Of a stretch of DNA of 64,000 bases, positions 20,838-64,000 are shown one piece after another (positions within the stretch are counted from its first letter, which is position 1; every line of letters starts with the position of its first letter). Source of the DNA: Lucinisca nassula. Taxonomy: Eukaryota; Mollusca; Bivalvia; Lucinida; Lucinidae. Below the pieces are notes generated by a model. It saw only the letters and a program-made list of their open reading frames with translations, ran no database searches and was not told where the DNA came from. Where the stretch lies: assembly GCA_963580285.1 (NCBI GenBank), contig CAUZLF010000760.1, positions 62,001 to 126,000 of the forward strand. Reading direction: 5' to 3'. A program made the position numbers and the translations under genes.

Positions 20838-20875
20838 TCAGGAGAGCGATTCAGGGCCATCATGGCACTCTTGTT
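20838..20875 (+). other. 3' terminus of a hairpin-ended element
   Basis: TTCAGGAGAGCGATTCAGGG then GCCATCATGGCACTCTTGTT matches the 3' ends at 39014-39055, 39720-39761 and 53353-53389. GGGCCATCATGGC can fold as a short hairpin. It closes the element whose core is the type A array; its 5' end is not visible. Confidence 0.75.
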
Positions 20876-32700: not shown

Positions 32701-33005
32701 TGCAGGCATCAAACTTCCAGATAACCGAGCTTACAGTCTATGTAGAGTTCGAATTTGGGCAGCATGAGACAAAAGGCTTTCAAATTACATGCCCTTGAAC
32801 ATATATATTAGTGAAAAATAGGGTCTCCAGCTTTTCTCGACCATTTCAAATCAGATCTTCATCAAACTTGCAGATAACCAGGAGGGGCATACAGTCTATG
32901 GTGAGTTTGAATTTGGGCCACGCAGGTCAAATGACTTCTGAGTTACCTGCCCTTGAGCATAAAGATTAGCAAAAATGGTGTATCCAGCTTTCCGCAACCG
33001 TTTTT
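29796..33005 (+). mobile_element. Element E2, left part: hairpin end plus type C core
   Basis: It starts AGCTCACCTGTCACATAGTG then ACAAGGTGAGCT, a hairpin, followed by GTCTGTCGTGCGTGCGTCC. The core is about nine units of about 330 bp (two sub-units each), sharing TTCATCAAACTTGCAGATAA, CCAGGAGGGGCTTACAGTCT, TTACCTGCCCTTGAGCATAA and CCCATAGACTTATAATGGGG. It is preceded by an oligo-T tract. Element E3 is inserted at 33006; the E2 core resumes at 46577. No protein is encoded; short open frames are reflections of the repeat unit. Confidence 0.8.
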
Positions 33006-34164
33006 ATGCCCCCAGCTTTGAAAAAGTTGGGGGGCATATTGCTTCTGGCTTGTTCGTTCGTTTGTTTGTTTGTTCGTTTGTTCGTTAGATTGTACGTTTG
33101 TCACGCTTTCTTCTGCATAGCATAACTTAAGAACCATGTATGCTAGTGTAGTGAAATTTCATATATGGTTTCCTCATGAAAAAATAGATGACCCATATTT
33201 TTTTCTTATCAGAATTATCTCCCCTTTTTGCATTATTTTCCTTTTAATTAAATAACATAGAAATCTCGTTAGCAAGATATCTCAAAAGTATTTGAGCTAG
33301 AGCCTTGATATTTGGTATACTGCTTGGGACTGAGGAGGAGATCACCTGATTAAATTTTCAACTAATTTAATGAAATTTTGTTAGAGTTATGGCCGTTTGC
33401 AATTTCTGGGCATTTAATTGTGTTGCTTTCTAGTGCATAGCATAACTTTATAACCATGTATGCTAGTGTTTTGAAATTTCATATATGGATTTCTCATGAA
33501 AAAATAGTTGACCCATATTTTTTTCTTTTCCGAATTATCTCCCCTTTTTGAGTTATTTCCCCTTTAATTAAATAACATAGAAATCTCGTTAGCAAGATAT
33601 CTCAGAAAGTATTTTAGCTGGAGCCTTGATATTTGGTATACTGATTTGGACTAAGGAGGAGATTACCTGATTAAATTTTCAACCAATCTAATGAAATTTT
33701 GGTAAAGTTATATCCCTTTGCAATTTCTGGCCATTTATTTGTGTTGCTTTCTAGTGCATAACTTAACTTTATAACCATGTATGCTAGTGTTTTGAAATTT
33801 CATATATGGATTTCTCATGAACAAATAGTTGACCCATATTTTTTTCTTTTCAGAATTATCTGCCCTTTTTGAGTTATTGCCTCTTTAATTAAATAACATA
33901 AAAATCTTGTTAGCAAGATATCTCAGAAAGTATTTTAGCTGGAGCCTTGATATTTGGTGTACTGATTTGGACTAAGGAGGAGATTACTGGATTAAATTTT
34001 CAACCAATTTAATGAAATTTTGTTAAAGTTATGGCCCTTTGCAATTCCTGGCCATTTATTTGTGTTGCTTTCTGGTGCATAACATAACTTTATAACCATG
34101 TATGCTAGTGTTTTGAAATTCCATATATGGTTTCCTCACGAAAAAAAAGTTGACCGCTGTTTTC
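33006..34164 (+). mobile_element. Element E3, left part: ATGCCCCC hairpin plus type D core
   Basis: The start ATGCCCCCAGCTTTG AAAAAGTTGGGGGGCAT folds as a hairpin. A (GTTC/GTTT)n stretch follows, then units of about 310 bp with AATCTCGTTAGCAAGATATC, GAGCCTTGATATTTGGTATA and AACCATGTATGCTAGTGT. It is interrupted by E4 (34165-39761) and E6 (40864-45997), and ends near 46576 in a small hairpin (GTGTTTTACAAACAC) followed by CTAGT. Hairpin plus CTAGT resembles a Helitron 3' terminus. Confidence 0.75.
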
Positions 34165-37100
34165 AGCTCACCTGGGCCGAAGGCTCCAGGGGAGCTTATA
34201 GTATAACTGGTCATCCGCCGCCCGTCGTATGTCCGTCACCACGACCAGTTATATCTCTGCAGCCTGCAGGCTGATCTCAATCATTTCTTATCTGTAGCAT
34301 GCCTTGGGTGGGGCAACAAAGAATTTAGCTATTTATCAAAATTGAAAGAAGGTAAGGTGACTGGGGAAAAAACCTCGGATGAGTTCCAAAACCGGCCAAG
34401 TCGGCCTATTTATCATAGAGTTACATCCCTTTGATTGCTGAAAATGCAGATATTTGACCTGGTCATCACTGCAGCCCCTAGAGTAATGTCCCTTTGATTG
34501 CTAAAAATGCCGATTTTTACCTTGTCATCACCGTAACCCCTTCAGTCTTGATCGGATCTTTCTGAAACTTATATGTAAGTTGGCTGGGGATAAAACCTCA
34601 AATGAGTTTGAAAACCGGCCAAGTCGGCCCATTTATCATAGAGTTACATCCCTTTGATTGCTGAAAATGCAGATATTTGACCTTGTCATCACTGTAGCCC
34701 CTTCAGTTTTGATCTGTTTTTCTGAAACTTATATGTAAGGTGACTGGGGATAAAACCTGGGATGAGTTCGAAAACCGGCCAAGTCGGCCTATTTATAGAG
34801 TTACGTCCCTTTGATTGCTGAAAATGCCTATTTTTGACCTTGTCATCGCCGTAGCTGCTTCAGTTTTGACCAGATCTTTCTGAAACTTATATGTAAGGTG
34901 ACTGGGGATAAAACCTCGGATGAGTTCGAAAACCGGCCAAGTCGGCCTATTTATCATGGAGTTACGTCCCTTTGATTGCTGAAAATGCAGATATTTGACC
35001 TTGTCATCACTGTAGCCCCTTCAGTTTTGATCCGATCTTTCTGAAACTTATATGTAAGGTGGCTGGGGATAAAACCTCGGATGAGTTTGAAAACCGGCCA
35101 AGTAGGCCCATTTATCTCAGAGTTAAGTCCCTTTGATTGCTGAAAATGCCGATTTTGGACCTTGTCATCAATGTAGCCCTTTCATTTTTGATCGGATCTA
35201 TCTGAAACTTATATGAAAGGTAGCTTGGGATAAAAACTCAGACGAGTTTGAAAACCGGCCAAGTCAACGCATTTATCATAGAGTAACATCCCTTTGATCG
35301 CTGAAAATGTCAATTTTTGACCTTGTCATCACAATAGCCCCTTCAGTTTTGATCGGATCTTTCTGAAACTTATATGTAAGGTGACTTGGGATAAAACCTG
35401 AGTATGAAAACCGGCCAAGTTGGTCTATTTATCATAGAGTTACGTCCTTTAGATTGCTGAAAATGCAGATATTTGACCTTGTCATCACCGTAGCCCCTTC
35501 GTTTTTTTTCGGATCTTTCCGAAACTTATATGTAATGTGGCTGGGGATAAAAACTTGGATGAGTTCGAAAACCTGCCAAGTCGGCCCATTTATCAGAGAG
35601 TTACATCCCTTTGATTGCTGAAAATGCAGATATTTGACCTTGTCATCACTGCAGCCCCTTCAGTTTTGTTCGGATCTTTCCGAAACTTATATGTAAGGTG
35701 GTTGGGGATAAAAACTTGGACGAGTTCGAAAATCGGCCAAGTCGGCCCATTAATCATAGAGTAATGTTCCTTTGATCGCTAAAATGCCGATTTTTGACCT
35801 TGTTATTACCGTAACCCCTTCAGTTTTGATCCGATCTTTCTGAAGCATATAGGTAAGTTGGCTGGGGATAAAACCTCGAATGAGTTCGAAAACTGGCCAA
35901 GTCGGCCCTTTTGTCATAGAGTTACATCCCTTTGATTTCTGAAAATGCAGATATTTGACCTTGTCATCACTGTAGCCCCTTCAGTTTCAATCGGATCTTT
36001 CTGAAACTTATATGTGAGGTGGCTGGGGATAAAACCTCGGATAAGTTCGAAAACCGGTCTAGTCTGCCGATTTATCATAGAGTTACGTCCCTTTGGTTGC
36101 TGAAAATGCCGATTTTGGACCTTGACTTCACTCTACCCCCTTCATTTTTGATAGGATCTATCTGAAACTTATATGAAAGGTAGCTTGGGATAAAAACTAA
36201 GACAAGTTTGAAAACTGGCCAAGTAGACCAATTTATCATAGAGTAACATCCATTTGATTACTTAAAATGTGGATTTTTGACCTTGTCATCACCGTAGCCC
36301 CTTCAGTTTTGATCTGATCTTTCTGAAACTTATGTGTAAGGTGGCTGGGGATAAAAACTTGGATGAGTTCGAAAACCGCCAAGTCTGCCCATTTATTATA
36401 GAGTTACGTCCCTCGGATCGATGAAAATACTGATTTTTGACCTTGTCATCACCGTAGCCCCTTCAGTTTTGATCGGATCTTTCTGAAACTTATATGTAAG
36501 GTAGCTGGGGATAAAAACTCAAATGGGTTTGAATAAGGGCCAAGTTGGCCCATTTATCATAGAGTTACCTCCCTTTGATTGCTGAAAATGCCGATTTTTG
36601 ACCTTGTCAACACCATAGCCCCTTCAGTTTTGATTGGATCTTTCTGAAGCTTATTTGTAAGGTTGCTCGGGATCAAGCTAGGGATAAGCTCGAAAACGGG
36701 CCAAGTCGACCCATTTGTCATAGAGTTACATCCGTTTGATTACTTCCGGAAACTTAAGTACAAGTTAGTCCAGGTTAAAAGCTTGGATGAGTTTGCAAAC
36801 TAGAGATGTGGGGTGATTACTGACAGAGTAGTGTCACCTCTTTTGCTGAAAATGCTTATTTTTGACCTTGTCATGACCGTAGCCCCTACAATTTTGATTG
36901 GATCTCTTGAAACTTACAAACAAGTAGGTAAGGGATAAAAGCTTGGATGATTTAAAAAAACTGATGAGGTTGGCTCATCTATTGTATAGTTACATCCCCT
37001 TTACTGCTGGAAATGCCTATATTTGACATTGTCATCACCATAACCCCTTCAGTTTTCATCGGATCTTTTTGTAACTTACCTGTTAGTAAGTAAGGGCTAA

Positions 37101-39761
37101 AAACTTGGCTGAGTTAAAAAATTGGGAGGTCGGCCTATATTTCGGAGAGTTATGTCCCCCTTGATTATAGTTGATTATAGAAAATGCCTATTTTTGATCT
37201 TGTCATCACCATAGCCCCATCAGTTTTGATCAGATCTTCCTGAAACTTACATACAAAGAAGTTGGGGTTAAAAGCTTGGATATATTTGAAAATTAGGGAT
37301 GTAGGTCGATTACTCATGGAGTTATGTCCCCTACTTTGCTGAATATGCTTAGTTTTGACCTTGTCATCACCTTAGCCCCTTCAGTTTTGATTGGATCTTC
37401 TTAAAACTTACAAACAAGTAAGTCAGTGGTAAAAGCTCGGATGAGTTCCAAAACTGACGAGGTTGGCTTATTGAATGTAGAATTGTGTCCCTTTTACTGC
37501 TTAAAATACCTATTTGAACTTATATTGAACTTGTCATCACCAAAGCCCACTTCAGTTTTCATCGGATCATCTTGAATCTTACATGTGAGTAAGTAACTGA
37601 TAAAACCTCGGCTGAGTTAAAAATTGGTGAGGTCAGCCTGTATTTCAGGGAGTTATGTCCCCTTGATTACAGAAAATGCCTGCTGTTTTACCTTGTCATC
37701 ACTATAGCTCCTTCAGTTTTATTAGCTCACCGTCACGTAGTGACGAGGTGAGCTTTTGGGATCACTTTGTGTCCGTCGTCCGTGCGTGCGTCCGTGCGTC
37801 CGTCCGTAAACTTTTTCTTCAAACGACATCTCCTCCTAAACCACTGAGCGGATTTTGACCAAACTTCACAGGAATGATCCTTAGGTGGTCCCCTTTCAAA
37901 GTTGTTCAAATGGTTCCGGTCCGTTGCACATATGGGTCACAGGAGCCAAAAATAGATTTTTTTCACCGAAAACTTAAAAAATCTTCTTCTCTGAAACTGC
38001 AAGGCCCAGGTCTTTGATATTTGGTATGAAGCTTCATCTAGTGGACCCCTACCAAGATTGTTCAAATTATAGTGCTGGAGCCAAAAATGTCCCCGCCCTG
38101 GGGCCCTTTGGTTTTACATGGGCTTATATAGGGAAAATCTTTAAAAATCTTCTTCTCTGAAACTGCAAGGCCCAGGTCTTTGATATTTGGTATGAATCTT
38201 TATCTAGTGGACCCCTACCAAGATTGTTCAAATTATAGTGCTGGGGCCAAAAATGCCCCCGCACGGGGGCCCTTTGGTTTTACATGGGCTTATATAGGGA
38301 AAATCTTTAAAAATCTTCTCTGAAACCGCAAGGCCCAGGTCTTTGATATTTGATATGAAACTTCATCTAGTGGACCCCTACCAAGATTGTTCAAATTGTA
38401 GTGCTGGGGCCAAAAATGCCCCCTTCCTGGGGTCCTTTGGTTGTACATGGGCTTATATAGGGAAAATCTTTAAAAATCTTCTTCTCTGAAACTGCAAGGC
38501 CCAGGTCTTTGCTATTTGGTATGAAGCTTCATCTGGTGGACCCCTTCCAAGATTGTTGAAATTATAGCCCTCTGGGCCACAAATGTCCCCGCCCCGGGGC
38601 CTTTTGGTTTTACATAGACTTATATAGTGATAATCTTTGAAAATCTTCTTCTCTGAAACAGCAAGGCCCAGGTCTTTGATATTTGGTGTGAAGCTTCATC
38701 TAGTGGACCTCTATGAAGATTGTTTAAATTATAGCCCTGAGGCCAAATATGCCCCCACCCCGTGGCCATATGGTTTTACAGGCTTATGTAGGGAATATCT
38801 TTAAAAAAGACCTTCTTCTCTGAAACCGAAAGGCCCAGTTCTTTGATATTTGGTGTGTAGCTATATCTATTGGACCTTTGCCAAGATTGTTCAAATTATA
38901 GCCTTTGTTGATATTTGGTATGAAGCTTCACCTTTTTAGACCTCCCTCAACATTATGCACATTATAGCCCTGGGGTCAATAATGGCCCTCCCCGGGGCCC
39001 ACTTGTTACTCTATGGATCAGGTGAGCGATCCAGGGCCATCATGGCCCTCTTGTTGGATCTTGTTGAAACTTACCTGTTAGTAAGTTAGGGATAAAATGG
39101 ATGAGTTCATGAACTGATGAGGTCAACCTATTTATCATAGAATTACACCCCTTGGATTGCAGAAAATGCCTCTTTTTGGCTGTAACTCCTTCAGTTTTCA
39201 TGGATCTTCTTGAAATTTATATGTTTGTAAGTTAGGGATAAAAGCTCAGACAAGTTTGAAAACTAGCAATGCCTGTCGCCAGTCAATTAATCATGGAGTT
39301 ATGTCCCCTGCTTGGCTGAAAATGCTTATTTTCCACCTTGTCATCACTGCTGCCCCTTCAGTTTTGATCGGTTCTTCATGAAACTTACAAACAAGTAAGT
39401 CAGGCAGAAAAGCTCGGAGGAGTTTGAAAACTGGTGAGTAAGGCCTATTTATCATAGAGTTACATCCCTTTGATTGCAGCAAATAATTGCTCATTTTTGA
39501 CCTTGTCAACTCCATAGCCCCTTCATTTGGATCTTCTTGAGAGTTACATATAAACAAGTCAGGGATAAAAGCTTGAATGAGTTTGAAAACCGGTATGGTC
39601 AGCCTATTTATCATAGAGTTACATTCTACTTGATTGCATAAAATGCTTAACTTGTCATCACCTTGTCCTCTCATAAATCCTTCAGTAAAGGTTGGCACTT
39701 CCTGAAAATTTGAATCTGTTAGCTCAGGTGAGCGATATAGGACCAGCTTGGTCCTCTTGTT
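34165..39761 (+). mobile_element. Element E4: hairpin-ended, type E core of about 160-bp units
   Basis: It starts AGCTCACCTGGGCCGAAGGC then TCCAGGGGAGCT (hairpin). The core holds over 20 units sharing GACCTTGTCATCACCGTAGC, CCCTTCAGTTTTGATCGGAT, CTTTCTGAAACTTATATGTA, GGGGATAAAACCTCGGATGA and CCGGCCAAGTCGGCC. Units become more diverged to the right. It ends CAGGTGAGCGATATAGGACC then AGCTTGGTCCTCTTGTT. E5 is inserted at 37724-39055. The flanks are E3 sequence cut in a T-run. No protein is encoded. Confidence 0.8.
37724..39055 (+). mobile_element. Element E5: complete hairpin-ended element inside E4
   Basis: It starts AGCTCACCGTCACGTAGTGA then CGAGGTGAGCTTTTG, followed by a CGTGCGTCCGTCC-rich stretch. 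One unit resembles type A (AACGACATCTCCTCCTAAAC ... CACAGGAATGATCC). About five units of type F (about 170 bp) follow, sharing AATCTTCTTCTCTGAAACTG, CAAGGCCCAGGTCTTTGATA and ACCAAGATTGTTCAAATTAT. It ends GGTGAGCGATCCAGGGCC then ATCATGGCCCTCTTGTT. E4 core resumes directly with GGATCTTGTTGAAACTT. Confidence 0.85.
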
Positions 39762-40863
39762 TTTCTTATCAGAATTATCTCTGCTTTTCGCTTTATTTCC
39801 CTTTTAATTAGATAACACAGAAAGCATGTTAGCAAGGTATCTCAAATAGTATTTGAGCTGGAGCCTTGATATTTGGTATACTGATTAAGAGTGAGGAGGA
39901 GATCACTTGATTAAATTTTCAACCAATTTAATGACATTTTGTTAGAGTCATGGCCCTTTACAATTTCTGGCCATTTAATTGTGTTGATTTGCTGTGCAAA
40001 GTATTTCTTAAGAACTATGTATGCTAGTGTATTGAAATTTTATATATGGTTTCCTCATGAAAAAATAGTTAACCCGTATTTTTTCTTATCTGACTTCCCC
40101 TTTTCGCTTTTTTCGCATTATTTCCTTTTTAATTAAATAACATAGAAATCTCGTTCGCAAGATACCTCAGAAAGTATTTGAGCTAGAGCCTTGATATTTG
40201 GTATACTGATTGGGACTGAGGAGGAGATCGCCTGATTAAATTTTCAACCAATTTAATGAAATTTTGTTTGAGTTATGGCCCTTTACAATTTCTGGCCATT
40301 TAATTAGGTTGATTTCCTGTGCATAGTATTACTTAAGAACTATGTATGCTAGTGTTAAAAATTTCATTAATGGTTTCCTCATGAAAAAATAGTTGACCCA
40401 TATATTTTTTTATCTGACTTATCTCCCCTTTTCGCGTTATTTCGTTTTTAATTAAATAACAAAGAAATCTCGTTAGCAAGATATCTCAAAAAGTATTTTA
40501 GCTAGAGCCTTGAAATTTGGTATACTGATTTGGGCTGAGGAGATCACCTGATTAAATTTTCTACCAATTTCATTCAATTTTGTTGGAGTGATTGCCCTTT
40601 GCATTTTCAGGTCATTTAATTGTGTTTCTTTCTTGTAGCAAGATATTTATGAAAAAATAGTTGACCGGTATTTTTTCCCTTTTCCGAATTATCTCCCCTT
40701 TTTGAGTTATTTCCCCTTTAATTAAATAACAGAAATCTCGTTAGCAAGATATCTCAAAAAGTAGTTGAGCTAGAGCCTTGATATTTGGTATACTGATTTG
40801 GACTAAGGAGGAGATTACCTGATTAAGTTTTCAACCAATTCAATGAAATTTTGTAAGAGTTAT
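39762..40863 (+). mobile_element. Element E3, middle part (type D core)
   Basis: It resumes with CTTATCAGAATTATCTC after E4 and contains about three type D units. It stops at GAGTTAT, where E6 is inserted in a phrase that reads GAGTTATGGCCC elsewhere. Confidence 0.8.
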
Positions 40864-43682: not shown

Positions 43683-43960
43683 TTGGGTACAACATAAATG
43701 TCATACGACAGAATGCATGCATGGTATTTAACCCAAATCACGGTTGGCAACTTTGTTTCCCCCTTTATTTGTACGTTGGTGGGTCAGGCCTCAGATTCTA
43801 CGTTGCTTCCAATTTTGTGGGACTTTGCCCGACATTGAGATGAAATGGAGTCTCAAGCCCTGCCGCCCAATGAAACCAATGTAGGGTTTATATGCATGCA
43901 CGGTCAGACTCGCACAACTTTGCCTTGGCAGGCCTCAGATTCTATGACGGTTCCAGCGTA
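43683..43960 (+). pseudogene. Copy B C-terminal end, split by a family C insertion
   Basis: The DNA from GATTGGGTACAACATAAATG to AGGCCTCAGATTCTA corresponds to the last residues of the Penelope-like ORF. Family C (43801-43929) then intervenes. AGGCCTCAGATTCTA is repeated (43786-43800 and 43930-43944), and the coding end continues with TGACGGTTCCAGCGTAAAG, which contains the stop. Confidence 0.85.
43801..43929 (+). mobile_element. Family C insertion with 15-bp target duplication
   Basis: CGTTGCTTCCAATTTTGTGG through CACAACTTTGCCTTGGC is bounded by the direct repeat AGGCCTCAGATTCTA. This shows that family C moves as a retroposon (SINE-like) and that this insertion came after the Penelope-like insertion. 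Confidence 0.85.
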
Positions 43961-44535
43961 AAGACTTACTGACTATTAGAAAGAATTTAATTTTATGTAC
44001 TGTTGGTATGTGCCTGATGCTCTGTCTCTGGTCGGGTCCATCGGAGTCTAACTGTTGGTTTTCATTTGCTCCAGCATTTCAGTGGTTTCTTGCAGTCCAG
44101 TCCTCACCGTTGTTTCATCTCTGTGGTTGTTCGATTTTTGTCTTCTCGGAGATGTTGCTCTGATGAGTTAGGAGACCTTCATGCGGACGGAACAAATTAT
44201 TTGTCTAAATCGCGACGGAAGTAAGGGCGAGGATTGCAGCTGCATAAAATTGATTTAACCCCCCGTCAGTTGAATTCGTTCCACTGATGATTCCAAGGAG
44301 GTTCTTCTGTTTTTCGTTTGTCTTTGAGTGTGTGTATTCCTTATAATTTTTTGTTTTGGATAGCCAATTGGCCATTTTGTGGGAAAGTAACTGTCCTTTT
44401 GGCTTTCCGCTATTGATGTTTCAATTCGGGTCTAGTTATTTCATTTTTGTGTTTCTTTCCCTCTGGTGCCATTGATGGGAGCTGTGGATTAATTGTATTT
44501 ATTCCTGATCATTGTATTCACTTCTATTTTATAAG
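43961..44535 (+). mobile_element. Penelope-like 3' untranslated tail of copy B
   Basis: It follows the coding end on the same strand: TGATGCTCTGTCTCTGGTCG, TTTGCTCCAGCATTTCAGTG, GAGATGTTGCTCTGATGAGT, CGCGACGGAAGTAAGGGCGA, TTGGCCATTTTGTGGGAAAG. It ends in GATCATTGTATTCACTTCTA. It belongs to the second tail subfamily. Confidence 0.85.
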
Positions 44536-45997: not shown

Positions 45998-46576
45998 TAT
46001 GGCCCTTTACAATTTCTGGCCATTTAATTGTTTTGATTTCCTGTGCATAGTATTACGTAAGAACTATGTATGCTAGTGTTTTGAAATTTCATTTATGGTT
46101 TCCTCATGAAAAAATAGTTGACCTGTATTTTTTTCTTATCTGACTTATCTGCCCTCTTCGCCTTGTTTCCTTTTTAATTTAATAACATAGAAATCTCGTT
46201 TGCAAGATATCTCAAAAAGAATTTGAGCTAGAGCCTTGAAATTTGGTATACTGATTTGGGCTGAGGAGGAGATTACCTGATTAAATTTTCAACCAGTTTA
46301 ATGAAATTTTGTTGGAGTGATTACCCTTTGCATTTTCAGGTCATTTAATTGTGTTTCTCTCTTGTTGCAAGATATTTAAAAAACTATTTAAATGGTTGCC
46401 TAAAAACTTGACAGGCTGATTTGGAATGACTAGTATATCGCCTGATTAACATTTGAAAAAAAAATCTGATTTTTTTTTTTTTTTTTTTTTTTGCGATAAT
46501 GGCCTTCTGAAAATTTGGACATTTATGGACAAGCATATGGTTGGGGGCATTGTGTTTTACAAACACCAATTCTAGT
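45998..46576 (+). mobile_element. Element E3, right part and 3' end
   Basis: The type D core resumes with TATGGCCCTTTACAATTTCT. A poly-A/poly-T stretch lies at 46457-46492. The end reads ATGGTTGGGGGCATTGTGTT then TTACAAACACCAATTCTAGT: a small hairpin followed by CTAGT. E2 core follows at once (TGATCTGATCTTTTTG), which is the phrase cut at 33005. Confidence 0.75.
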
Positions 46577-48505
46577 TGATCTGATCTTTTTGTTACTTTT
46601 GGTAAACGAGGATAAGCATAAAATCTCTAATGAGTTTGATTTTGGCTTGAATCTGACCACCGGATTTCCAGTTACATCCCCTTGAGGGTGAAAAAATTTT
46701 CCCATAGACTTACAATGTGAAAACGATGTCTCCAACTTGCTTGGCTATTTCTGACCTGACCTTCATCAAACTTCCAGATAACCAGAAGGAGCTTACAGTC
46801 TATGTTTAGTTCGCATTTTTGGGCCGCATGAGACAAAAGGCTTTCAAATTACATGCCCTTGAACATAAATATTAGTGAAAAATAGGGTCTCCACCTTTTC
46901 TCAGCCGTTTCTAATCTGATCTTTTTGAAACTTTCAGTAAATGAGAACAAGCATAAAATCTCAGATGAGTTTGAATTTGGCTTGAATCTGACATTCGGTT
47001 TTGATGTTACAGCCCTTAGAGCGCGAACAGTTTTCCCATAGACTTACAATGGAAAAAGGATGTTACCAACTTTTCTTTGCCATTTCTGATCTGATCTGAT
47101 CATCAAACTTGCAGATAACCAGGAGGGACATACAGTCTACATAGAGTTCGAATTTTGGCTGCATGAGACAAACAACTTTGGAGTTACCTGCCCTTGAGCA
47201 TGAATATTAGTGAAAAATGATGTCTGCACCTTTTCTCAACCTTTTTGATCTGATCTTTTTGAAACTTTTAGCAAACGTGGACAAGCAAAAATCTTCTTCT
47301 CAGAAACCATAAAGGCCAGAGCTTAGATATTTAGTATGTAGCAACATCAAATGGCAACCTACATAAATCCTGCCAATTATGCCCCTGGGATCCAAATTGG
47401 CCACACCCCAGGGCTCTTTAGCTCCCATAGACTTACAATTGGAAAAACTTCAAAAATCTTCTTCTCTGAAACCACAGGGCCCACAGCTTAAATATATAGC
47501 ATGTAGCAACGTCAAGTGGTCACCAAAAATAAATCCTGCCAACCAATTGCCCTTGGGGTCAAAATTGGTCATGCTCATGAGCCCATTTGCTCCCATAGAC
47601 TTATAATGGAAAAAAAAATCAAAAATCTTCTCCTCTGAAACCATAAGTCCCAGAGCTTAGATATTTTGTATGTAGCAACATGAAATGGTCATCTTAAGAA
47701 ATCCCGACAACCATGCCCCTTGGAAAATTGGCCATGCCCCTGGGCCCATTAGCTACCATAGATTTAAAATGGAAAAAAAACAACAACTTCAAATGGAAAA
47801 AAACATTCAAAAATCTTCTTCTTTGAAACCATAAGGCCCAGAGCTTAGGTATTTTGCATGTAGCAATGTTGAGTAGTTGCCTACACAAATTCTGCCAATC
47901 ATACCCTGGGGTCCAAATTGGCCAAATCCTGTGGCTCCTTAATTCCAATAAACTTATAATGAAAAAAAAAAAGCTTCAAAAATCTTCTTCTCTGAAACCA
48001 TTAAGTACAGACCTTAGATATATATATAGCTACATAAAATGGTTGCCTACATAAATCCTGCCAACCTGTCAGCCTCGATAGCGCAGTGGTTAGCGCGTTC
48101 GACTCATGATCGAGAGGTTGTGCGTTCGAATCCGCCACCGGTATCGAGGTGTGTCCTTGGGCAAGACACGTAATGACACTGTCCCACTCCACCCAGGTGT
48201 AAATGGGTAGCAGTGGTGTGAAAGCCACTGCCTCTCTCTCTCGCACGCGTGAAAACACCCGGAATGAGTGTTCGAGAGCGATTCAATAAGCTTACAGCTT
48301 TCATCGCAATCGAACTAAAATAAATTAGTATAAACTAAATCCTGCCAACCATGCCCTTTGGGTCAAAATTGGCCAACTCCCCAGGGCTCATTAGCTCCTA
48401 TAGACGTATACTGGAAAAAATCAAAAATCTTCTTCTCCAAAGCCATAAGGCCCAGAGCTTAGATATTTAGTATGTAGCAATGTCAAGTATTCTCCTACAC
48501 TAACG
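46577..48505 (+). mobile_element. Element E2, right part (type C then type F-like core)
   Basis: It continues the E2 core after E3. Two to three type C units run to about 47280. About six units related to type F then follow (AAAATCTTCTTCTCTGAAAC, CATAAGGCCCAGAGCTTAGA, ATTTAGTATGTAGCAAC, CATAGACTTATAATGG). A SINE is inserted at 48067. I see no clear 3' terminus of E2. Confidence 0.72.
48067..48335 (+). mobile_element. tRNA-headed SINE with 15-bp target duplication
   Basis: The head GCCTCGATAGCGCAGTGGTT and GTTCGAATCCGCCACC are A and B boxes of a tRNA-like promoter, with a CAT anticodon position (GACTCATGATC). The body has CCTTGGGCAAGACACGTAAT and AATGGGTAGCAGTGGTGTGA, and the end is AAAATAAATTAGTATAAAC. 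The duplication TAAATCCTGCCAACC lies at 48052-48066 and 48336-48350. The element is intact and probably recent. Confidence 0.9.
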
Positions 48506-54955: not shown

Positions 54956-56651
54956 TTACGTTGGAGCCGTCATAGAATCTGAGGCCTGACCCACCGGCGT
55001 GCAATTAAAGAGGGAAACAAAGTTGCCAACCGTGATTGGGTTAACTACCATGCATGCAGTCTGTCGTATAACATCCATGTTGTACCCAATCTTTTTATAA
55101 CGAAGAGCGATTTTACGAAATTGGGTGCTGAAGTCATTGCGGTTATATATTTTTCTGAATTTATATTCTAAGTCACCATAAAATTCGGGTTCCGATAGAC
55201 CTTGTTGCAGAAGAGATTTAAGTCCAATATTGAATTTCGAAATTAAATCAGAATGGAGTCTATAAAATTTTGAAAATGCTTTGTGTAGTTTATGGTACCG
55301 ATAACCCTGATTAAGGAGTTTAGCCGTTAATAATTTATTACGAGTGTTGAAGTCAGTTACATGACTACACACTCTAGCAAATCGAATTAATTGCGAAATA
55401 TAAACGCCATAGGATGGCGCACGAGGAACATCACCATCCAAAAAAGGAAAATTTACAATCTCAAAATCAAAGTCATCGCGTTTATCATAAGTTTTGCACG
55501 AAACAAACCCATCTACAATAGATAGATGTAAATCCAAAAACGGGGCCGCGGTATCAGAAGAATTTGCTTTATTTAATTGAAGTTCTGGGGGGGGGGGGGT
55601 AAATCTGACTGATCAAACCATCGAAATAGGTATTATCAATATTTAATAAATCATCTAAATATCTAGAAGTGGAGCTAAAAGCTTCAATAATTTCAGATTG
55701 GTTATCAATGGAAAGCGACAACATGAAGTCTCGTTCATAACAATACAAGAACAGATCAGCCACAAGAGGTGAGCAATTCGTACCCATCGGAATACCCACA
55801 ATTTGTCTAAATAACTTAGTACCGAATCTAATATAAATATTGTCAAGTAGAAAGGTGAGGGCATCACACACTTTCTGACATGACCAAAGTGTATAATTCT
55901 TATGCTCTTTAGAAGTGAAAAATGCATTTCTGACATTACATGCAAGATAGAGAGAATCTTCTCTGTGAAAAGCCCATTCAATTAAATCATTAAGCTTTTC
56001 TTTTATAAGATTATGAGGAACTGTAGTGTAAAGAGTGGAAAAATCGTAAGTAGACAGACTTGAAGCACGAAAATGTCTGGATTTCAATTTGTTTAAAACC
56101 TCATTCGAATTTTTATAGACCAAAACAGATTTCTTCCTGATCTCTCAAAGACTTTATCACAATATTTAATCACATGCGTTTTAATAGCAGTAAGACAGGA
56201 CGTTAATAATTTAGAAAGTTCAGTGGTAGTGCAAGAGCTAGAATTTGCAATAAACCGTGCTTTGTAAGGTCTTTTATGAAGTTTTGGTAGCCAGTATAGC
56301 GTAGGAAGCTTGTCTTGGCCTTCGGTAACACACACAGCAAACTTGGTGGCTGAATGACAAATATGTTTATCTACTATAACTCTCTCTTCAGCTAAAGGCT
56401 GAAGTTCATAGGCCTTAGTACCACCAAGCTCCTGCTTAAGCGTGTTAACATAGTGGAGCCGTCACACAACGACGACATTGTTAGCGGCCTTGTCTGCAGG
56501 GGCAAAAACAAACTTCTTATGAAATTCTTGAATACCTAGCTTAAGAAGACGTAAAGACGTCTTAGGCTTAGGAGGTAATAAGTTAGTATTTTGAGAATAG
56601 AAAGAAATGCGTTTATTCACTAGTTTTAAAATGCTTAGTTTCCAGTCCTTA
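54956..56651 (-). pseudogene. Penelope-like (Naiad-type) reverse transcriptase, copy A C-terminal half
   Basis: Minus strand. After the LINE the frame resumes KLSILKLVNKRI, then FVFAPADKAANNVVVV, a TGA (56464-56462), RLHYVNTLKQEL, and LPTLYWLPKLHKRPYKARFI, a block typical of Penelope-like enzymes. Motif A is STYDFSTLYTT, the next block GIPMGTNCSPLVADLFLY, and motif C RYLDDLL with the catalytic DD. The thumb-side part has DLHLSIVDG, FPFLDGDVPRAPSYGVYI and NQGYRYHKLHKAF. The end is TAPT then TAA. Two frameshifts are seen: one base missing near 56113, and a 13-base G run (55587-55599) where copies have five. The enzyme would copy RNA at a nicked target. This copy is dead. Confidence 0.93.
56462..56464 (-). 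other. In-frame TGA at an expected cysteine (site d)
   Basis: The frame reads NNVVVV-TGA-RLHYVNT. From knowledge of related Penelope-like enzymes, cysteine usually follows this hydrophobic run. The frame is open on both sides for dozens of codons. It is a candidate selenocysteine codon; a simple nonsense mutation is the alternative. Confidence 0.65.
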
Positions 56652-59600
56652 GTTTAAACTTTATTTCTTTTTGTATATACATATTACACGTAATATGAGT
56701 GATACAATACACAAAGCACAAACATGTCAATATATACAAAATGGGATTCAGAAGAAAGTGATAAGACTTGTGTAATCTGTTTCCCATTGGGTACTCTGAC
56801 TGAAGCATCACTATATATGTGTACACACATGATAAAGCAGTTGTTACTAACATGGATTTAGAGAATATTACTAGAGTGAAAATCAATACATGTATAACAA
56901 ATGATATGCTATGCTGCTGCTTGGCTGGGGATCGGGGGAGGGGGGGGGGGCGGAGAGAGCAACGGTGATGACACTGGTATAACGCTCACTAGACATCTCG
57001 ATTTACTTCAAGTAGGGTAATCGTCCTTATTCCAAAGTTTGTCTACAGGTGAAAATTTCTATATTAGATGTCTTACTGTCTATTGAATTTTGAATCTATT
57101 GAAATTTCTATATTAAATGTCCTACTGTCTATTGAGTTTTGAATCTGCGGCTTTGAATGATTAATTCTTGCACTGACAACATAATGGTTTTGTTTTGTTC
57201 GTATGTCAAGTTTGAGTCGCCGAATAGTAGAGTATTCAATGTTGGGTCACAAAACTCAGAGATACTATCGAGAAGCTGTTGTCTGATACCTACTTACTTA
57301 GCACAATCAAGGAAATAATGCCTGGTGTCTTCAACTGACCCACAGTCACAAAGGAAGCAGTCTACAATATTTTTAGAAAATAGATGTTGGTTCAAGGAAC
57401 TGCAATGTGTTCTTAATCGAGAATGGTAAATCTGTCCTAGACGTCGACCTTCATAATAAAACAACGGAGGCTTGCTCAATCCAGTATTGAGTCTATATTT
57501 AAAAGACGATAACGTAGGTAATTCACGTATAACTTGAGGAAGCTCGTTCCATTCACGTATGACAGAGGGTAGGAAGGAGTTATAGTAAAGTTGCGTGTTT
57601 GCATGAACAGTCTGCAAGATATTAACATTTCTAAGGTTATATCGGGAAGTATTACCAATTGTAGGGGGAACCGAAGCGTTTAGATAATCAGGACATAGGC
57701 CATTCACCATTTTGTAAAATTGGATAAGTTTGTGTTTCTTTCGTCTTTCTGAAAGTTTGTCCCACCCGACCTCTTCAAGAAGTGCATTAATCGAAACAGG
57801 TTTTGTAGCACCAGATACGATGCGAGCAGCCTCATGCTGATTTTTTTTCTAATTCGTTGGACTCGTACTGCGCACAATTATTCCATATGACGTCGCCGTA
57901 TTCGAGAAGAGGACGTATGAATGAAAAATAAATAGTTTGCAATGATTTTCTGTCTAATTGAAATTTTAATTTCCGCATAATATTAATTCTCGACCAAGCT
58001 TTAGTTTTCAAAATTTCAAGATGATCATGCCAGGTACAGTCACTATTTAGCGTAATCCCTAAATGTTTATGCGCATTCACTTCCAATATAGGTTGGGTAT
58101 TCATGCAAATGGGAGGGTGATAAGGTCTATTATGCTTTATAGAAATTAAGAGAACTTCTGACTTGTTAGGGTTGAATTTTACAAGCCATTTTTCCGCCCA
58201 ACAGTAGACTCTCGCTACATCGTCATTAAGAGTTTGAGCAGCTGTCATTGGATTATCGACAATAAGATAAAGGCTCGTATCATCGGCAAATAGCCGTATG
58301 GTAGAGTTTATATTTTCGACTATATCATTTATGTAAACAAGAAAAAGCAGTGGTCCCAGGATAGAACCCTGGGGTACACCAGCTTTGAGACTGGTCCAAT
58401 CCGAGGATACACCCGGAAGCACTACACGTTGGCTTCTATTATTTAGGTAGTCCGTAAACCAATCAATTAGAGAACCGGAGATGCCCACAGTTTGCAGTTT
58501 AAAAAGAAGGCCCCTATGCCAGACCCTGTCGAAGGCTTTACTAATATCGAAAAATACAGCACGCACTTCTTTGCCTTCGTCCAAGGCCTGGCAAAAGGTA
58601 TTGTATATATCAGTAAGTTGGTTTACAGTGGAATCACCAGCAATAAAACCTGATTGCAATGTAGTTATGACTCCGTTTTCCATAAGAAAATTGAAAACAT
58701 ATTTATGGACAAGCTTTTCCATTACTTTGCCAATCATACTGAGAAGAGAGATAGGTCTATAGTTGGATGAGTCTGATTGATCTCCCTTTTTAAATATAGG
58801 TGTAACATTTGCCTGTTTCCATATGTTCGGGACTTGGCCACATGAAAGCGAGTAATTGAAGAGTTCACAAAGGGGAAAGGATAATGGATGAGGAAGCTCT
58901 TTCAGTAAGCGGTTATTTATTAGATCTGGTCCAGATGCTTTACCAACTTTCAAAGATTTTAATACAGATTCAACCTCATTTGGAGACACCGATATGTTAT
59001 TGAGTGAGGAATTAACACGACGTCTAAACCTCGGTAAGGTAGCTCCACTGTCATCAAGATGGGTTTGGGATGTAAAGAATTCATTCAATATTTCAGCCTT
59101 GTCTTGTTCGTCAGAAAATACTTCGTCATTACTTTGGAGAGGGGGGATAGAAGTTTTTTGTTCAGGTTTTATAAAGCTTTTCAAAATTTTCCACCAATCT
59201 TTGTGTCCATGATTACTATTTTGCAAATTATCTGCTAATTTATCCGTTTGTAACTTTCTAGATTTGCGCGTTTCACGTGTTACTTGATTCCTTACCTGTT
59301 TATATTTTTCAAAATCAGCCAAATTATTTGTTCGCTTGAATTTGTCGAAACAGCGCTTCCGCTTCCTCATAAGTTTCCTTATATTATTGGCTAGCCACTC
59401 AGGGTCTGATTGTCTTATTTTAACTGACTTGTTAGGAACATGTTTTTTTGCTAGAAGTGTAATAGAGTTGGTAACATTGTTTGCATAAATATCAATATCG
59501 TCATCTTTCAATGCGCCACAATTCGTAGATTCTATATCCCGAGCAAACGATGCGTAATCCCCTCTGTCATATAACCATACATTACGAGTAAAAACGGGAC

Positions 59601-60082
59601 ACGATTTCTTATTAAACTTGAGCACACAAAATATTGGACAGTGATATCTAATGTCCTGATTGAGAAAGGGTTCACCTACGCCACTAAGAAGTACATTGTT
59701 CTTGTTCGAGGTCAGAAATAAATCTATTATGGACGACGAGTTCTCGGTAAAGTGTGTTGGTTCTAATATTAAGTTCTCAAGACCAAAATACTGACAAATG
59801 TTATCGATTTTTCTACAGGTATTTGCTTTAGATAAATCCAGATTAAAATCCCCTGTTACTAATATATTTTGAATACTCGTATCAGTAGCCAGTCCTATCG
59901 AATCTTCTAATGCTGTTAGAACTTCATTTGTACTATTAGGAGGCCTATAAAAGGTCCCAATTAACATTTTTCTACGGTCAACTGTTAATTCAAGCCATAT
60001 GCATTCAACATTATTCATTTCTAAGTCAAGTCGTCATTTAGAAAAATAATTCTGATCTACATAGACACAGACACCGCCATTC
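56652..60082 (-). mobile_element. CR1/L2-like LINE inserted in the Penelope-like element
   Basis: The insertion is bounded by the direct repeat CCAGTCCTTA (56642-56651 and 60083-60092), a 10-bp target duplication. Removing the LINE and one repeat restores the Penelope-like frame (ALKDW to KLSIL). The 5' end is truncated within the endonuclease. The 3' untranslated part is 56652-57128 and ends, in sense, AAAGAAATAAAGTTTAAAC with no long poly-A. A poly-G/C run lies at 56936-56951. Confidence 0.93.
57129..60082 (-). pseudogene. LINE ORF2: endonuclease (partial) and reverse transcriptase
   Basis: The frame starts inside the apurinic-type endonuclease (GNGGVCVYVDQNYFS), with a TGA at 60034-60036, then runs openly for 728 codons. 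Endonuclease motifs are YRPPNS, GDFNLDL, IIDLFLTS and HCPI; the Asp usually before HCP is replaced (IRYHCPI). Reverse transcriptase motifs are FKKGDQSDSSNYRPISLLS, FFDISKAFDRVWH (A), AGVPQGSILGPLLFLVYIND (B) and LFADDTSLY (C, intact). One extra A in a run (57838-57848) shifts the frame. The C-terminal part has a CLCDC/H/C-like cluster (CFLCDCGSVEDTRHYFLDC), a TAA at 57294, and ends near 57129. The clade call (CR1/L2 group) is inference. Confidence 0.92.
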
Positions 60083-60748
60083 CCAGTCCTTAAGGGCTTT
60101 ATGCTCAACATACTCTCGCTTACACCATCGATTACCGAATTCATTCAAGGAAGCAGCGATTTCATCTCTACATTTACTGAAATCAATTTTAGAAGGAAAC
60201 CGATATTTCGGTCCTTTAGAAATTATATTCCTTATCCTAGAATCAGGAATAATTTTCAAATTGCCAGTAATTACATGACCAGCAGCAGGATAGCAATGCA
60301 CTGAATTTTTACAATCACATGAATCAGGAGTATTAGTACCAATATCAAGATCTGAAACACGTTTATTAAAAAAATAAAAATGAAAGATCTAACAGGTTTG
60401 TTATATTTATAGCAAATTTATAGGTGTTTCAGTATTTTGAAAATAAGCAGGAATTGAAGAAAGCACAGAGCTCTCACGGAAGATACTGGGCAAATCTATA
60501 AAATCCATACCCTTATTAATGAAGGATATTTTGAAGAAATGGCGTTTATGATTAATTTCAGAATCAATGTAAGGACGGAGAGTATGCTGAGTATAGCCTC
60601 TAGTTAAGAGAGCCGCATCATATAACTGATTAGAACTATCGTAGAACTTATTCGCCTCGGTGTCCAGAAGACGTAAAACAGAAACGGGTAATGAACTTAA
60701 AAATGAAAGCATAGAGTGGCGTCCATGATTTAATAATATAATAGACAA

Positions 60749-60751
60749 TCA
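60749..60751 (-). other. In-frame TGA, conserved in two copies (site c)
   Basis: The frame reads NNTRLK-TGA-LSIILLNHGRHSM. The same TGA occurs in copy C at 63900-63902. From the codon before the TGA to the window edge the two copies differ at five positions, all synonymous. I cannot say whether related elements have cysteine here. Confidence 0.7.
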
Positions 60752-61199
60752 CTTAAGTCTAGTATTGTTTCGTTTAAACGAACGTAGTTTACGTTTAAAT
60801 TTACCATTTTTTCCTGGTGCCGTGAGATCTAGTTCTGCGTTTTCGACATTCCAGGAGCGAGAAAATATCAAAGTCCGGCATTCTAGAAATATTACCCTCA
60901 TGATAAATGTTGTCATTAAATCCCAGTGGAAAAGGGGTCTGTAAACATTTAATCCATTTCAGTTCAGCCTCATGTCTTTTTATAATTTTGAATCTAGATG
61001 TAGAATTTGCATCGTAATAAAGTTTTTCCACTGGTTGTATAACAATGTTATTTACAGAATGACCTGTACGTCGAAAGTGACGGTACAAGAAAGTGTCAGT
61101 TTTCTTAGGCTTACTCATTCTACGATAATGCTCGTTCAATCTAGTTTTAAGCATGCGGTTAGTTTGACCGACGTACTGCATATTACAGTTTGCAGCACG

Positions 61200-61202
61200 T
61201 CA
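61200..61202 (-). other. In-frame TGA at an expected endonuclease cysteine (site b)
   Basis: The frame reads LIYLIT-TGA-RAANCNMQYVG. Penelope-like GIY-YIG domains usually have a Cys pair between the GIY and YIG motifs. The second (NC) is present; the first is this TGA. It is 33 nt from site a in the same frame. Confidence 0.72.
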
Positions 61203-61232
61203 TGTAATTAGATAAATTAAACTTGTAGACTG

Positions 61233-61235
61233 TCA
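61233..61235 (-). other. In-frame TGA at an expected cysteine, conserved in two copies (site a)
   Basis: The frame reads VNMSDLT-TGA-QSTSLIY. The same TGA is found in copy C at 63555-63557. Cysteine is common at this position just before the GIY motif in related proteins (a statement from family knowledge). Confidence 0.72.
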
Positions 61236-61760
61236 TGTCAAATCAGACATGTTAACTACAGAGAAGCGTCTACCGTTTACAGATGAAGTAACGGTAGACG
61301 CAGTGCTTAAATGCGAAAAACATCTGCACCTCTTGGCATTGCACTTAGAAATACTAGGATACATTCCACTTCTTTTCCACGGATTAGTATATTTTCGAAG
61401 GATGGGCGATTTGAGAGGAGATAGTCTTATACGAAGACTACTCCCAAAAACATTGGTATCGCCTGCTCCATTGAGATTAACTGAAGTTACAGAAGACAAA
61501 TTTAAGGGTCTAACCAATACCGAAGGCAACATAGTATTAAAGTTCTTAATAGAATGGGGAATCCGTACAGAAGAAGCAGAGTGTAACCTAAGGGGTGATA
61601 TTGATATTTTAAATGTATTTGTTATACTCATTTGGGTTAATAAGTTAATGATACCGTCAAAACTAAAGCGATCTTCATACCGGTCATTAAATAAAACAGC
61701 GTATAAAATTACTGAAAATAATTCCTTCGAAAAGAAGGAAGGTACAACAAAAGCCCACAA

Positions 61761-62472: not shown

Positions 62473-63093
62473 ACGTTGGAACAGTCATAGAATCTGAGGC
62501 CTGACCTACCGGCGTGCAATTAAAGACGGAGGCAAAGTTGTCAACCGTGATTGGGTTAACTATCATGCATGCAGTCTGTCGTATAATATTTATGTTGTAC
62601 CCAATCTTTTATATCGAAGAATGATTTTACGAAATTGGGTGCTAAAGTCATTGCGTTTAGATATTTTTCTGAATTCATATACTAAGTCACCATAAAATTC
62701 GGGTTCCGATAGACCTTGTTGCAGAAGAGATTAAAGTTCAACATTGAATTTTGAAATTAAATCAGAATGATTAAAATTTTGAAAAGGCGTTTCGTAGTTT
62801 ATGGTACGATAACCCTGATTAAGAAGTTTAGCCGTTAAAAATTTATTACGAGTTACGTGACTACATACTCTAGCAAATCGAATTAATTGCGAAATATAAA
62901 CTCCATAGGATGGCGAACGAGGAACATCACCATCCAAAAAAGGAATATTCACAATCTCAAATTCAAAATCACCGCGTTTATCATAAATTTTGCAGGAAAC
63001 AAACCCATCTACAATAGATATATGTAAATCCAACAACGGGGCCTCAGTATCAGAAGAATTTGCTTTATTCAACTGAAGTTCTAGGGGGTAAAA
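62473..63093 (-). pseudogene. Penelope-like reverse transcriptase C-terminal fragment (copy D)
   Basis: Minus strand. LELQLNKANSSDTEAPLLDL, VDGFVSCKIYDKRGDFEFEI, GDVPRSPSYGVYISQLIRFA and LTAKLLNQGYRTINYE match copy A with an indel near 62800. The end (GTTGGAACAGTCATAGAATC on the plus strand) is the coding terminus, TVPT then a stop. It starts abruptly at 63093, where the L1-like LINE resumes. Confidence 0.9.
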
Positions 63094-63418
63094 CATTTTA
63101 ATTTTGGAAATGGTTTAATCAACTGGGTTAAAGTATTATACACACATGCTAAAAGCTGCGTGACCAACACTGGCCATTATTCAGAGTTTTATCAAATAAG
63201 GCGTGGGATAAGACAAGGATGTCCCGTATCTCCATACATATATGTATTGATTATATGTATTGCATTTTTATCAAATCAAGTCAGAATGAATCAAGTTATC
63301 AAGGGTCGGTATATATCTGGCACGGAATACAAAACGTCGCTTTTCGCATATGACGCGACGTTTATAACGGATGGTTCAATGAAGTCCTTCGAAACTCTTT
63401 TAAGCATACTTGAAAAAG
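63094..63418 (+). pseudogene. L1-like LINE reverse transcriptase, right piece
   Basis: It continues the frame left at 54027: FGNGLINWVKVLYTHAKSCV, then RRGIRQGCPVSPYIYVL (motif B), then TSLFAYDATFITDGS (motif C). The catalytic F-A-D-D has become F-A-Y-D. The frame ends near SILEKE where Penelope-like copy C begins. Confidence 0.85.
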
Positions 63419-63554
63419 AAGTGGAATGTATCCTAGTATTTCTAAGTGCAATGCCAAGAGGTGCAGATGTTTTTCGCATTTAAGCAATGCGTCTACCGTT
63501 ACTTCATCTGCATACGGTAGACGCTTCTCTGTAGTTAACATGTCTGATTTGACA

Positions 63555-63557
63555 TGA
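63555..63557 (+). other. Site a TGA in copy C
   Basis: GATTTGACA-TGA-CAGTCTAC is identical in context to copy A 61235-61233. It falls just before the deletion in copy C. Confidence 0.7.
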
Positions 63558-63899
63558 CAGTCTACATATTTCATTTAACCAGTGGAAAAACTTTACTATG
63601 ATGCAAATTCTACATCTAGATTCAAAATTATCAAAAGACATACGGCTGAACTCAAATGGATTAAATCTTTACAGACCCCTTTTCCGCTGGGATATAATGT
63701 CAACATTTATCATGAGGGTAATATTTCAAAAATGCTGGACTTTGATATTTTCTCGCTCCTGTAATGTCGAATGCTGGACTTTGATATTTTCTCGCTCCTG
63801 TAATGCCGAAAACGCATAACTAGATCTCACGGCACAAGGAAAAATGGTAACTATAAACGTAAAATACGATCTTTTAAAGGTAACAAAACTAGACTGAAG

Positions 63900-63902
63900 T
63901 GA
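63900..63902 (+). other. Site c TGA in copy C
   Basis: AGACTGAAG-TGA-CTGTCAATT, against AGACTTAAG-TGA-TTGTCTATT in copy A. The TGA is kept while the neighbouring codons differ only synonymously. Confidence 0.75.
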
Positions 63903-64000
63903 CTGTCAATTATATTATTGAATCATGGACGCCACTCTATGCTTTCATTTCTAAGTTCATTACCCGTTTCTGTTTTACGTCTTCTGGACACCGAGGCGAA

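What the first reader, a model, noticed from the sequence alone, without database searches (positions are those of the whole stretch)
54956..61760. Naiad-type Penelope-like element with multiple in-frame TGA codons: candidate selenoprotein retroelement
Seen: copy A has four TGA codons (61233-61235, 61200-61202, 60749-60751, 56462-56464) inside otherwise continuous homologous frame. Each is TGA; TAA or TAG appear only after clear indels. Known: Naiad Penelope-like elements in clams have been reported to encode selenoproteins with several selenocysteines, often at conserved cysteines. Inference: at least three of the four sites (a, b, d) match expected cysteines, so this is such an element. If so, tools that read TGA as stop will fragment the protein and call it dead for the wrong reason.
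Basis: partly seen in the sequence, partly recalled or inferred. Interest (0 to 1): 0.93.

Follow-up and report, generated by a model that had tools for sequence, protein, structure and literature searches.

The report
Jumping gene encoding a selenium protein
A young family of jumping genes in a large, probably animal, genome carries four UGA "stop" codons inside one otherwise open gene; they are likely read as the rare amino acid selenocysteine, so the element's DNA-copying protein would depend on selenium, and ordinary gene finders would cut it into pieces.

Summary
Observation confirmed, interpretation supported. Copy A is a broken member of a young Penelope-like family with N-terminal GIY-YIG (Naiad-type) in a 2.93-Gb assembly. 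The four TGAs are a family trait, not decay: of 60 genomic copies scored, 56 have exactly four TGA and no other stop in the matched 746 codons. In 30 records the only fixed stops inside the frame are these TGAs (28/30, 30/30, 30/31, 28/29). Variants shared by three or more contigs are all synonymous (13:0, against 181:537 for singletons; 7:0 beyond the last TGA). Three sites fall on cysteine columns; 60751 mostly does not. Relatives show Trp, or a gene call that breaks, at the same columns, as expected of TGA read under two codes; their DNA was not seen. A related family in the same genome has an 885-codon frame without internal stop. Not tested: selenocysteine insertion, host machinery (searches unanswered), host identity. 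Multi-selenocysteine Naiads of clams and spiders are, as I recall, published: a new member of a known kind.

The parts
54956..61631 (-). Copy A coding frame, ATG 61631 to TAA 54958-54956, broken by indels and by an inserted retrotransposon
   Evidence: ATG and tblastn segments; open frames in other copies
61233..61235 (-). TGA site a (codon 178), before the GIY-YIG core, at a Cys column
   Evidence: 28 of 30 copies TGA; relatives W 36, C 3 of 43
61200..61202 (-). TGA site b (codon 189), seven codons before MQYVGQT, at a Cys column
   Evidence: 30 of 30 copies TGA; relatives W 30, C 8 of 41
60749..60751 (-). TGA site c (codon 339), linker, mostly not a Cys column
   Evidence: 30 of 31 copies TGA; relatives D 61, N 11, C 4 of 85
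56462..56464 (-). TGA site d (codon 620), N-terminal side of the RT, at a Cys column
   Evidence: 28 of 29 copies TGA; relatives C 25, W 8, D 1 of 34
60942..61304 (-). GIY-YIG endonuclease core, contains sites a and b
   Evidence: model core pLDDT about 70-90, best PDB match I-TevI 1ln0
60311..60319 (-). CxC motif of the linker (S-C-D-C-K-N-S)
   Evidence: sequence; first Cys TGT/TGC in 28 of 29 copies
54959..56641 (-). Reverse transcriptase region (DFSTLYT, GIPMGTNC, RYLDDLL stretches; motif names recalled)
   Evidence: RVT_1 weak at 13 bits in L050, above cut-off in homologue P0017
54900..54973 (-). SECIS-like hairpin, Form 2 type, overlapping the last codons and the TAA stop
   Evidence: Rfam SECIS_1 24.1 bits only, below threshold
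56652..60082 (-). Inserted non-LTR retrotransposon with endonuclease and RT domains
   Evidence: 10-bp target-site duplication
43944..44018 (+). SECIS-like 3' end of another, older copy (copy B)
63414..63998 (+). N-terminal fragment of another copy, with TGA at sites a and c; site b lies in its gap
62474..63102 (-). C-terminal fragment of another copy, ends S-D-S-M-T-V-P-T

Best explanation
Copy A is a broken copy of a young Naiad-type Penelope-like retrotransposon family whose single long ORF contains four in-frame TGA codons that are predicted to be decoded as selenocysteine, directed by a predicted SECIS hairpin that overlaps the ORF's own TAA stop codon. Shown: the family, four fixed TGA columns, otherwise open frames in tens of copies, the mark of selection on the protein on both sides of the TGAs, and a conserved SECIS-like sequence. 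Inferred: host factors for selenocysteine (SBP2, eEFSec, tRNA-Sec) act through the hairpin so that all four UGAs are read as Sec and a protein of 1074 residues is made; its GIY-YIG domain would nick target DNA and its RT would copy element RNA at the nick, leaving head-to-tail arrays. Also inferred: once a SECIS is present, Cys and Sec exchange easily through TGY-TGA changes, so the set of Sec sites differs between lineages.
For: Four fixed TGA and no fixed TAA or TAG before the terminator in 30 records. 56 of 60 scored copies with exactly four TGA and no other stop; 57 of 60 with frames of at least 1076 codons. Shared variants 13 synonymous to 0 nonsynonymous against 181 to 537 for singletons, p 2.4e-8, and 7 to 0 against 85 to 257 beyond site d, p 7e-5. 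Sites a, b and d on Cys columns. Relatives carry W at 71 of 163 cells of the TGA columns and 18 of 583 cells of Cys columns, but at 27 of 28,163 cells of other non-Trp columns; near-identical relatives read W or break at the same codon. SECIS-like core at the ORF end: best of the window's candidates at -27.0 kcal/mol, 4 hits at or below -25 in 40 shuffled windows; present in 17 of 18 intact 3' ends that reach it; in one diverged copy 3 of 36 core against 19 of 38 apical letters changed. Same-genome relative L051 has no internal stop in 885 codons and no SECIS found.
Against: No direct evidence of selenocysteine. Host tRNA-Sec and SEPSECS searches did not complete (for example). The Rfam SECIS_1 hit (24.1 bits, threshold 35) was not listed in two narrower scans and no SECIS reached threshold in 19 loci. 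Site c is Asp in most relatives. The W-means-TGA reading of relatives rests on gene calls, not on their DNA. With a two-contig threshold the synonymous excess is weaker (33 to 45; p 0.0019). In three other diverged copies the SECIS core is not significantly more conserved than the apical part.
Confidence: 0.92

Rival explanations
1. The TGAs are ordinary nonsense mutations in a dead or non-autonomous lineage that is moved in trans by another element's protein.
For: Copy A itself is broken. Non-autonomous families are common (general knowledge).
Against: All four fixed stops are TGA and none is TAA or TAG; 57 of 60 copies have frames of at least 1076 codons; shared variants are synonymous also beyond the last TGA; three of four sites are Cys columns.
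Confidence: 0.04
2. UGA is read as something other than selenocysteine (ordinary stop read-through, or a code in which TGA is Trp).
For: Some relatives are written with W at these columns.
Against: Genuine Trp columns of the family are TGG; the W columns are Cys columns in distant relatives; a SECIS-like hairpin is conserved.
Confidence: 0.02
3. The TGAs end translation and the element makes separate endonuclease and RT proteins by internal initiation.
For: Selection beyond site d alone would fit an internally started RT; in relatives gene finders find start codons soon after b and d.
Against: Sites a and b lie inside the GIY-YIG region, so stopping there would break it; homologue P0017 has both domains in one 936-aa frame; it would not explain Cys columns or the SECIS-like hairpin.
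Confidence: 0.02

Closest known systems
Naiad Penelope-like elements (Craig, Yushenova, Rodriguez and Arkhipova 2021, doi 10.1093/molbev/msab225; not held, contents recalled; only the title was seen, in reference lists quoted)
   Same: N-terminal GIY-YIG, CxC linker, C-terminal RT, tandem arrays; recalled abstract: Naiads of clams and spiders encode selenoproteins with several selenocysteines
   Different: A particular family with sites a, b, c and d; c is Asp in most relatives, the first Cys of CxC is Cys here though probably TGA in relatives; SECIS-like hairpin overlaps the stop (whether the paper reports this I cannot say)
Sec-type relatives in protein catalogues (P0001, P0003, P0047, P0151 and others; P0163 and P0172 are named after Candidatus Thiodiazotropha MAGs, symbionts of lucinid clams as I recall, probably host DNA)
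   Same: 70-80% identical, same Cys columns written as W or breaking the gene call, same C-terminal tail
   Different: Trp or break at the first Cys of CxC; Asp at site c in most
Canonical Penelope elements with C-terminal GIY-YIG (PMC11167929, passages seen)
   Same: RT and GIY-YIG in one ORF, tandem arrays with pseudo-LTRs
   Different: Opposite domain order; the element studied there has a hammerhead ribozyme; no selenocysteine mentioned in the passages seen
Selenoprotein P (abstract of PMC8230778 in the listing)
   Same: Several genetically encoded selenocysteines in one protein
   Different: A host protein, not a mobile element; the SECIS-like element here starts inside the coding end

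Membership tests
Naiad (Penelope-like element with N-terminal endonuclease; features recalled) | GIY-YIG endonuclease at the N end, RT at the C end of one ORF | tested here: met
   Model matches I-TevI (target TM 0.69-0.71, Foldseek prob 0.99, E 0.035; none at E 0.001); Pfam finds no GIY-YIG in this family's own frame and RVT_1 only at 13 bits, but homologue P0017 passes both cut-offs in this order
Naiad | CxC motif in the linker | tested here: met
   S-C-D-C-K-N-S, first Cys kept in 28 of 29 copies
Naiad | Head-to-tail copies with shared flanking repeat | tested here: met
   Neighbouring hits about 4.15 kb apart; 3' repeat also found 5' of the ORF in many loci
Naiad | No hammerhead ribozyme | tested here: met
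   None among 20 matches at E up to 10 in the window or at gathering level in 19 loci
Naiad | RT phylogeny within Naiad; insertion-in-fingers domain | not tested
   No named Naiad reference sequences at hand
Eukaryotic selenoprotein gene | In-frame TGA at Cys columns of homologues | tested here: met
   Three of four sites; site c mostly not
Eukaryotic selenoprotein gene | SECIS element 3' of the TGA codons | tested here: met
   By structure, position and conservation; not by Rfam threshold; SECISearch3 not available
Eukaryotic selenoprotein gene | Host has tRNA-Sec and Sec synthesis | not tested
   Searches for RF01852 and TIGR03531 in the own genome did not complete (for example)
Eukaryotic selenoprotein gene | Selenocysteine shown in the protein | not testable with these tools
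   Needs 75Se labelling, mass spectrometry or a read-through assay

The most novel reading that the evidence does not exclude
The SECIS is doubly coded: its ATGA and the 5' strand of its stem are the last codons (Met-Thr/Met-Ala/Val-Pro-Thr), and its apical As are part of the TAA stop, so one stretch both ends translation and recodes four upstream stops. The tail M-[M/T]-[A/V]-P-T of relatives would then be kept for its RNA: the swaps T/M and A/V are those that leave ATGA, GG, CC and AC unchanged and keep a C-G or U-G pair. The element's spread would depend on selenium supply, and Sec sites would turn over (gain at c, loss at CxC) while the SECIS stays.
Probability: 0.75. Interest if true: 0.65.

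Novelty: new member of a known kind. Interest (0 to 1): 0.55.

Why it matters
A retrotransposon that spends four selenocysteines on its endonuclease-RT would tie the spread of a mobile element to a host trace-element pathway, and offers tens of near-identical intact copies on which recoding of several UGAs by one SECIS can be tested. It also points to a systematic annotation error: protein catalogues hold large clusters (P0151 with 4545 members, P0047 with 1412) that look like pieces cut at in-frame TGA, and others with probably false Trp, so such elements are likely to be split or called dead.

Tried and rejected
Rfam as a SECIS test: one sub-threshold hit in the whole-window scan, not listed in two narrower scans nor at gathering level in 19 loci; not relied on. 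A crude SECIS pattern gives about 6 hits per shuffled window, hence the energy-constrained scan.

The first codon tally used copy A's own frame and a diagonal filter that kept 15 of 30 loci; copy A's indels put the frame wrong after 60811, so it was replaced. On checking, L042 and L043 overlap by 3001 bases, so one copy had been counted twice; one search repeats the tally and the variant test with the overlap masked, and its numbers are the ones given (the variant counts did not change). One of the 30 rows is that duplicate. L001-L021 were left out of these tallies because they are the same places as the window and L031-L050. L047 was left out of the variant test (A-to-G hypermutated). Of 20 fetched 3' ends, L064 and L071 were cut too far upstream and do not count.

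L051 as a control: I first took it to have Cys at every site; on checking Cys is seen by eye at b, CxC and d but not at a, and the stretch upstream of b holds stops, among them a TGA, and is not shown to be coding. It is a control for the part from b to the end only.

The 72 relatives were picked for having Met at the fifth place from the end, so only the residues after it are informative; the tail also occurs in relatives with Cys at site d, so it does not by itself separate Sec from Cys types. Relatives' DNA: scans of viral contigs and genome contigs with A2 and P0163 confirmed none. Protein searches listed 19 of 19, 120 of 424 and 120 of 2882 hits, so tallies cover these 256 proteins only.

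Literature: searches did not list the key paper, which is not held, on SECIS position, listed nothing that I recognised as a SECIS overlapping a stop (listings only). I therefore claim nothing about what is not in print. Host not identified.
Full report
What is there. On the minus strand, 61631 to 54956, lies copy A of a Penelope-like element. The large gap is a 3.4-kb non-LTR element (60082-56652) with RT and endonuclease domains, flanked by TAAGGACTGG on both sides; in 17 of 20 other loci the two flanks of the gap meet directly (not in L034, L041, L049).

Family and age. The window is G000:C684:62001-126000 of a 2.93-Gb assembly. A 771-base probe from copy A found 39 further copies 98-99% identical (40 scored of 2124 candidates). 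Copy A differs by about 1% from the majority of the copies fetched. Some copies stand head to tail about 4.15 kb apart.

The TGAs are fixed, and are the only fixed stops before the terminator. In the window and 29 loci, with one overlap masked (35 and 51 alignments for the two halves), I tallied every codon of the open frame (repeating). Majority-stop columns: TGA at codons 178 (28 of 30; 1 TGT, 1 TGG), 189 (30 of 30), 339 (30 of 31; 1 TGG) and 620 (28 of 29; 1 TAA), and the terminal TAA (31 of 31). Sporadic stops: 23 TAA, 17 TGA, 16 TAG among 32,549 cells. The family's Trp columns are TGG and its Cys columns TGY in nearly all cells.

Intact copies keep them. A whole-genome search with the read-through frame scored 60 of 53,453 candidates: 56 have exactly four TGA and no other stop in the matched region, 1 has four TGA and a TAG, 2 have three TGA, 1 has three TGA and a TAA; 57 have open frames of at least 1076 codons (recounted). 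With relative P0007, which has Cys at c and d, 54 of 54 scored copies have exactly two TGA. The queries carried Cys at the sites, so Cys-bearing copies would have been favoured. Only the best candidates are scored, so these are not genome-wide totals.

The protein shows selection past every TGA. In copies at least 96% identical (31 and 37 alignments, L047 excluded), variants present on three or more contigs are 13 synonymous and 0 nonsynonymous; singletons are 181 and 537 (p 2.4e-8). Beyond site d it is 7:0 against 85:257 (p 7e-5). With a threshold of two contigs the excess is weaker: 33:45 (p 0.0019), beyond d 18:25 (p 0.027). Singletons look like decay after insertion; shared variants passed through elements that still moved.

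Cysteine columns and the Trp puzzle. Three protein searches gave 256 relatives (the listed part of the hits). At site a they read W 36, C 3 (of 43); at b W 30, C 8 (of 41); at d C 25, W 8, D 1; at the first Cys of CxC W 10, C 7; at the second C 17 of 17. In the 138 relatives of the first two searches at 45% identity or more, W is rare at columns that are neither Cys, TGA nor Trp here: 27 of 28,163 cells, against 71 of 163 at the TGA columns and 18 of 583 at Cys columns. The simplest reading is that some gene calls used a code with TGA as Trp. Near-identical pairs support it: P0001 reads W at CxC where P0052, 98.9% identical over 186 aa, ends; P0003 reads W at d where P0149, 98.8% identical over 498 aa, starts two codons later. 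In all, 59 relatives start at the first Met after b, 23 start just after d, and 25 end just before CxC; eleven are exactly 286 aa, the distance from that Met to CxC. The relatives' DNA was not seen, so this is inference. In P0078, P0079, P0082 and P0135 b is Cys and the next Cys column is W, as expected if Sec and Cys exchange.

Site c differs. It is D in 61 of 85 relatives and C in 4, one of them P0038, about 76% identical. It may be a recent gain through Cys. Conversely the first Cys of CxC is TGT or TGC here (28 of 29) although probably TGA in Sec-type relatives.

SECIS. Eukaryotic SECIS elements have two helices around a kink-turn with a GA quartet, and an apical AAR motif as loop (Form 1) or bulge (Form 2) (passages of PMC2746813; PMC3706390). 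At 54973-54900 (minus) there is ATGA-C, a stem strand GGCTCCAAC, GTAAA, an apical stem, the complementary GTTGGTGCC and TGAT; the free fold keeps ATGA and TGAT unpaired. Of eight constrained candidates in the window it has the best energy, -27.0; 40 shuffled windows gave 4 hits at or below -25, so one so close to a given stop codon by chance is unlikely. It aligns in 30 rows, 29 distinct places. Of 20 intact 3' ends fetched, 18 reach it; 17 match the core, one has ATGG. In a diverged copy in L041, 3 of 36 core letters changed against 19 of 38 apical (p 1e-4); two copies with a shortened apical stem keep the core (at most 1 change). Against this, copy B of the window (4 against 11, p 0.08) and two other L041 copies (3 against 2, 2 against 2) show no significant difference; over all rows it is 24 of 1044 core and 84 of 1102 apical. 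In L035, L036 and L037, all on one contig, the stem's one mismatch is an A-U pair.

The SECIS overlaps the stop codon. The TAA (54958-54956) supplies As of the apical motif; the ATGA lies in the codons for Met-Thr. In 72 relatives picked for having Met at this place, 71 have next a residue whose codons all begin with A, giving ATGA, and 56 fit M-[M/T/I]-[A/V]-P-T. Distant relatives (P0007, P0010, P0011, P0014, P0017 and L051) end differently.

Control in the same genome. A family near P0011 has a copy (L051) with an 885-codon frame from just before site b to the end and no internal stop, no SECIS found by the scanner in its 3' stretch, and, by eye, Cys at b, CxC and d but not at a. Of the other P0011-like copies at about 50-59% identity, most carry mixed TAA, TAG and TGA.

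Naiad membership. GIY-YIG at the N end: an AlphaFold2 model (mean pLDDT 57, about 70-90 in the core) has I-TevI as best PDB match (target TM 0.69-0.71, E 0.035). Pfam does not call the domain in this family's own frame and RVT_1 is weak, but homologue P0017 passes both cut-offs in N-to-C order. CxC linker, tandem arrays and no hammerhead hit fit too. Phylogeny was not tested. That clam and spider Naiads include multi-Sec selenoproteins is recalled from the abstract of Craig et al. 2021, not held; only its title was seen, in reference lists.

Verdict. Not shown: Sec in the protein, host machinery, host identity.

Noticed in passing
L047 2029-5387: One copy has a dense A-to-G cluster (57 of 80 changes in the C half, 13 of 24 in the N half are A>G), as expected if its RNA was edited by ADAR before reverse transcription.
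   Followed up: partly
window 62530-62460 (-): Another copy's 3' end keeps the 5' half of the SECIS and then departs from the family: truncated or rearranged.
   Followed up: partly
window 12800-20900, 30000-32900, 33000-40800, 46000-48500: Long tandem arrays with periods near 145, 160, 320 and 335 bases, several on both strands.
   Followed up: no
window 28905-28978, 5480-5568: Perfect-hairpin stretches that match miRNA families far below threshold on both strands; probably small inverted-repeat transposons.
   Followed up: no
window 48079-48135 (+): tRNA-like match just above Rfam's threshold (32.2 bits against 29), partial; perhaps a SINE.
   Followed up: no
G000:C5:124072600-124076400 (L051): A second, related GIY-YIG/RT family near P0011 without internal stops in its 885-codon frame.
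   Followed up: partly
P0163, P0172: Relatives at 76-80% identity are deposited as proteins of Candidatus Thiodiazotropha MAGs: likely host (clam) DNA in symbiont bins.
   Followed up: no
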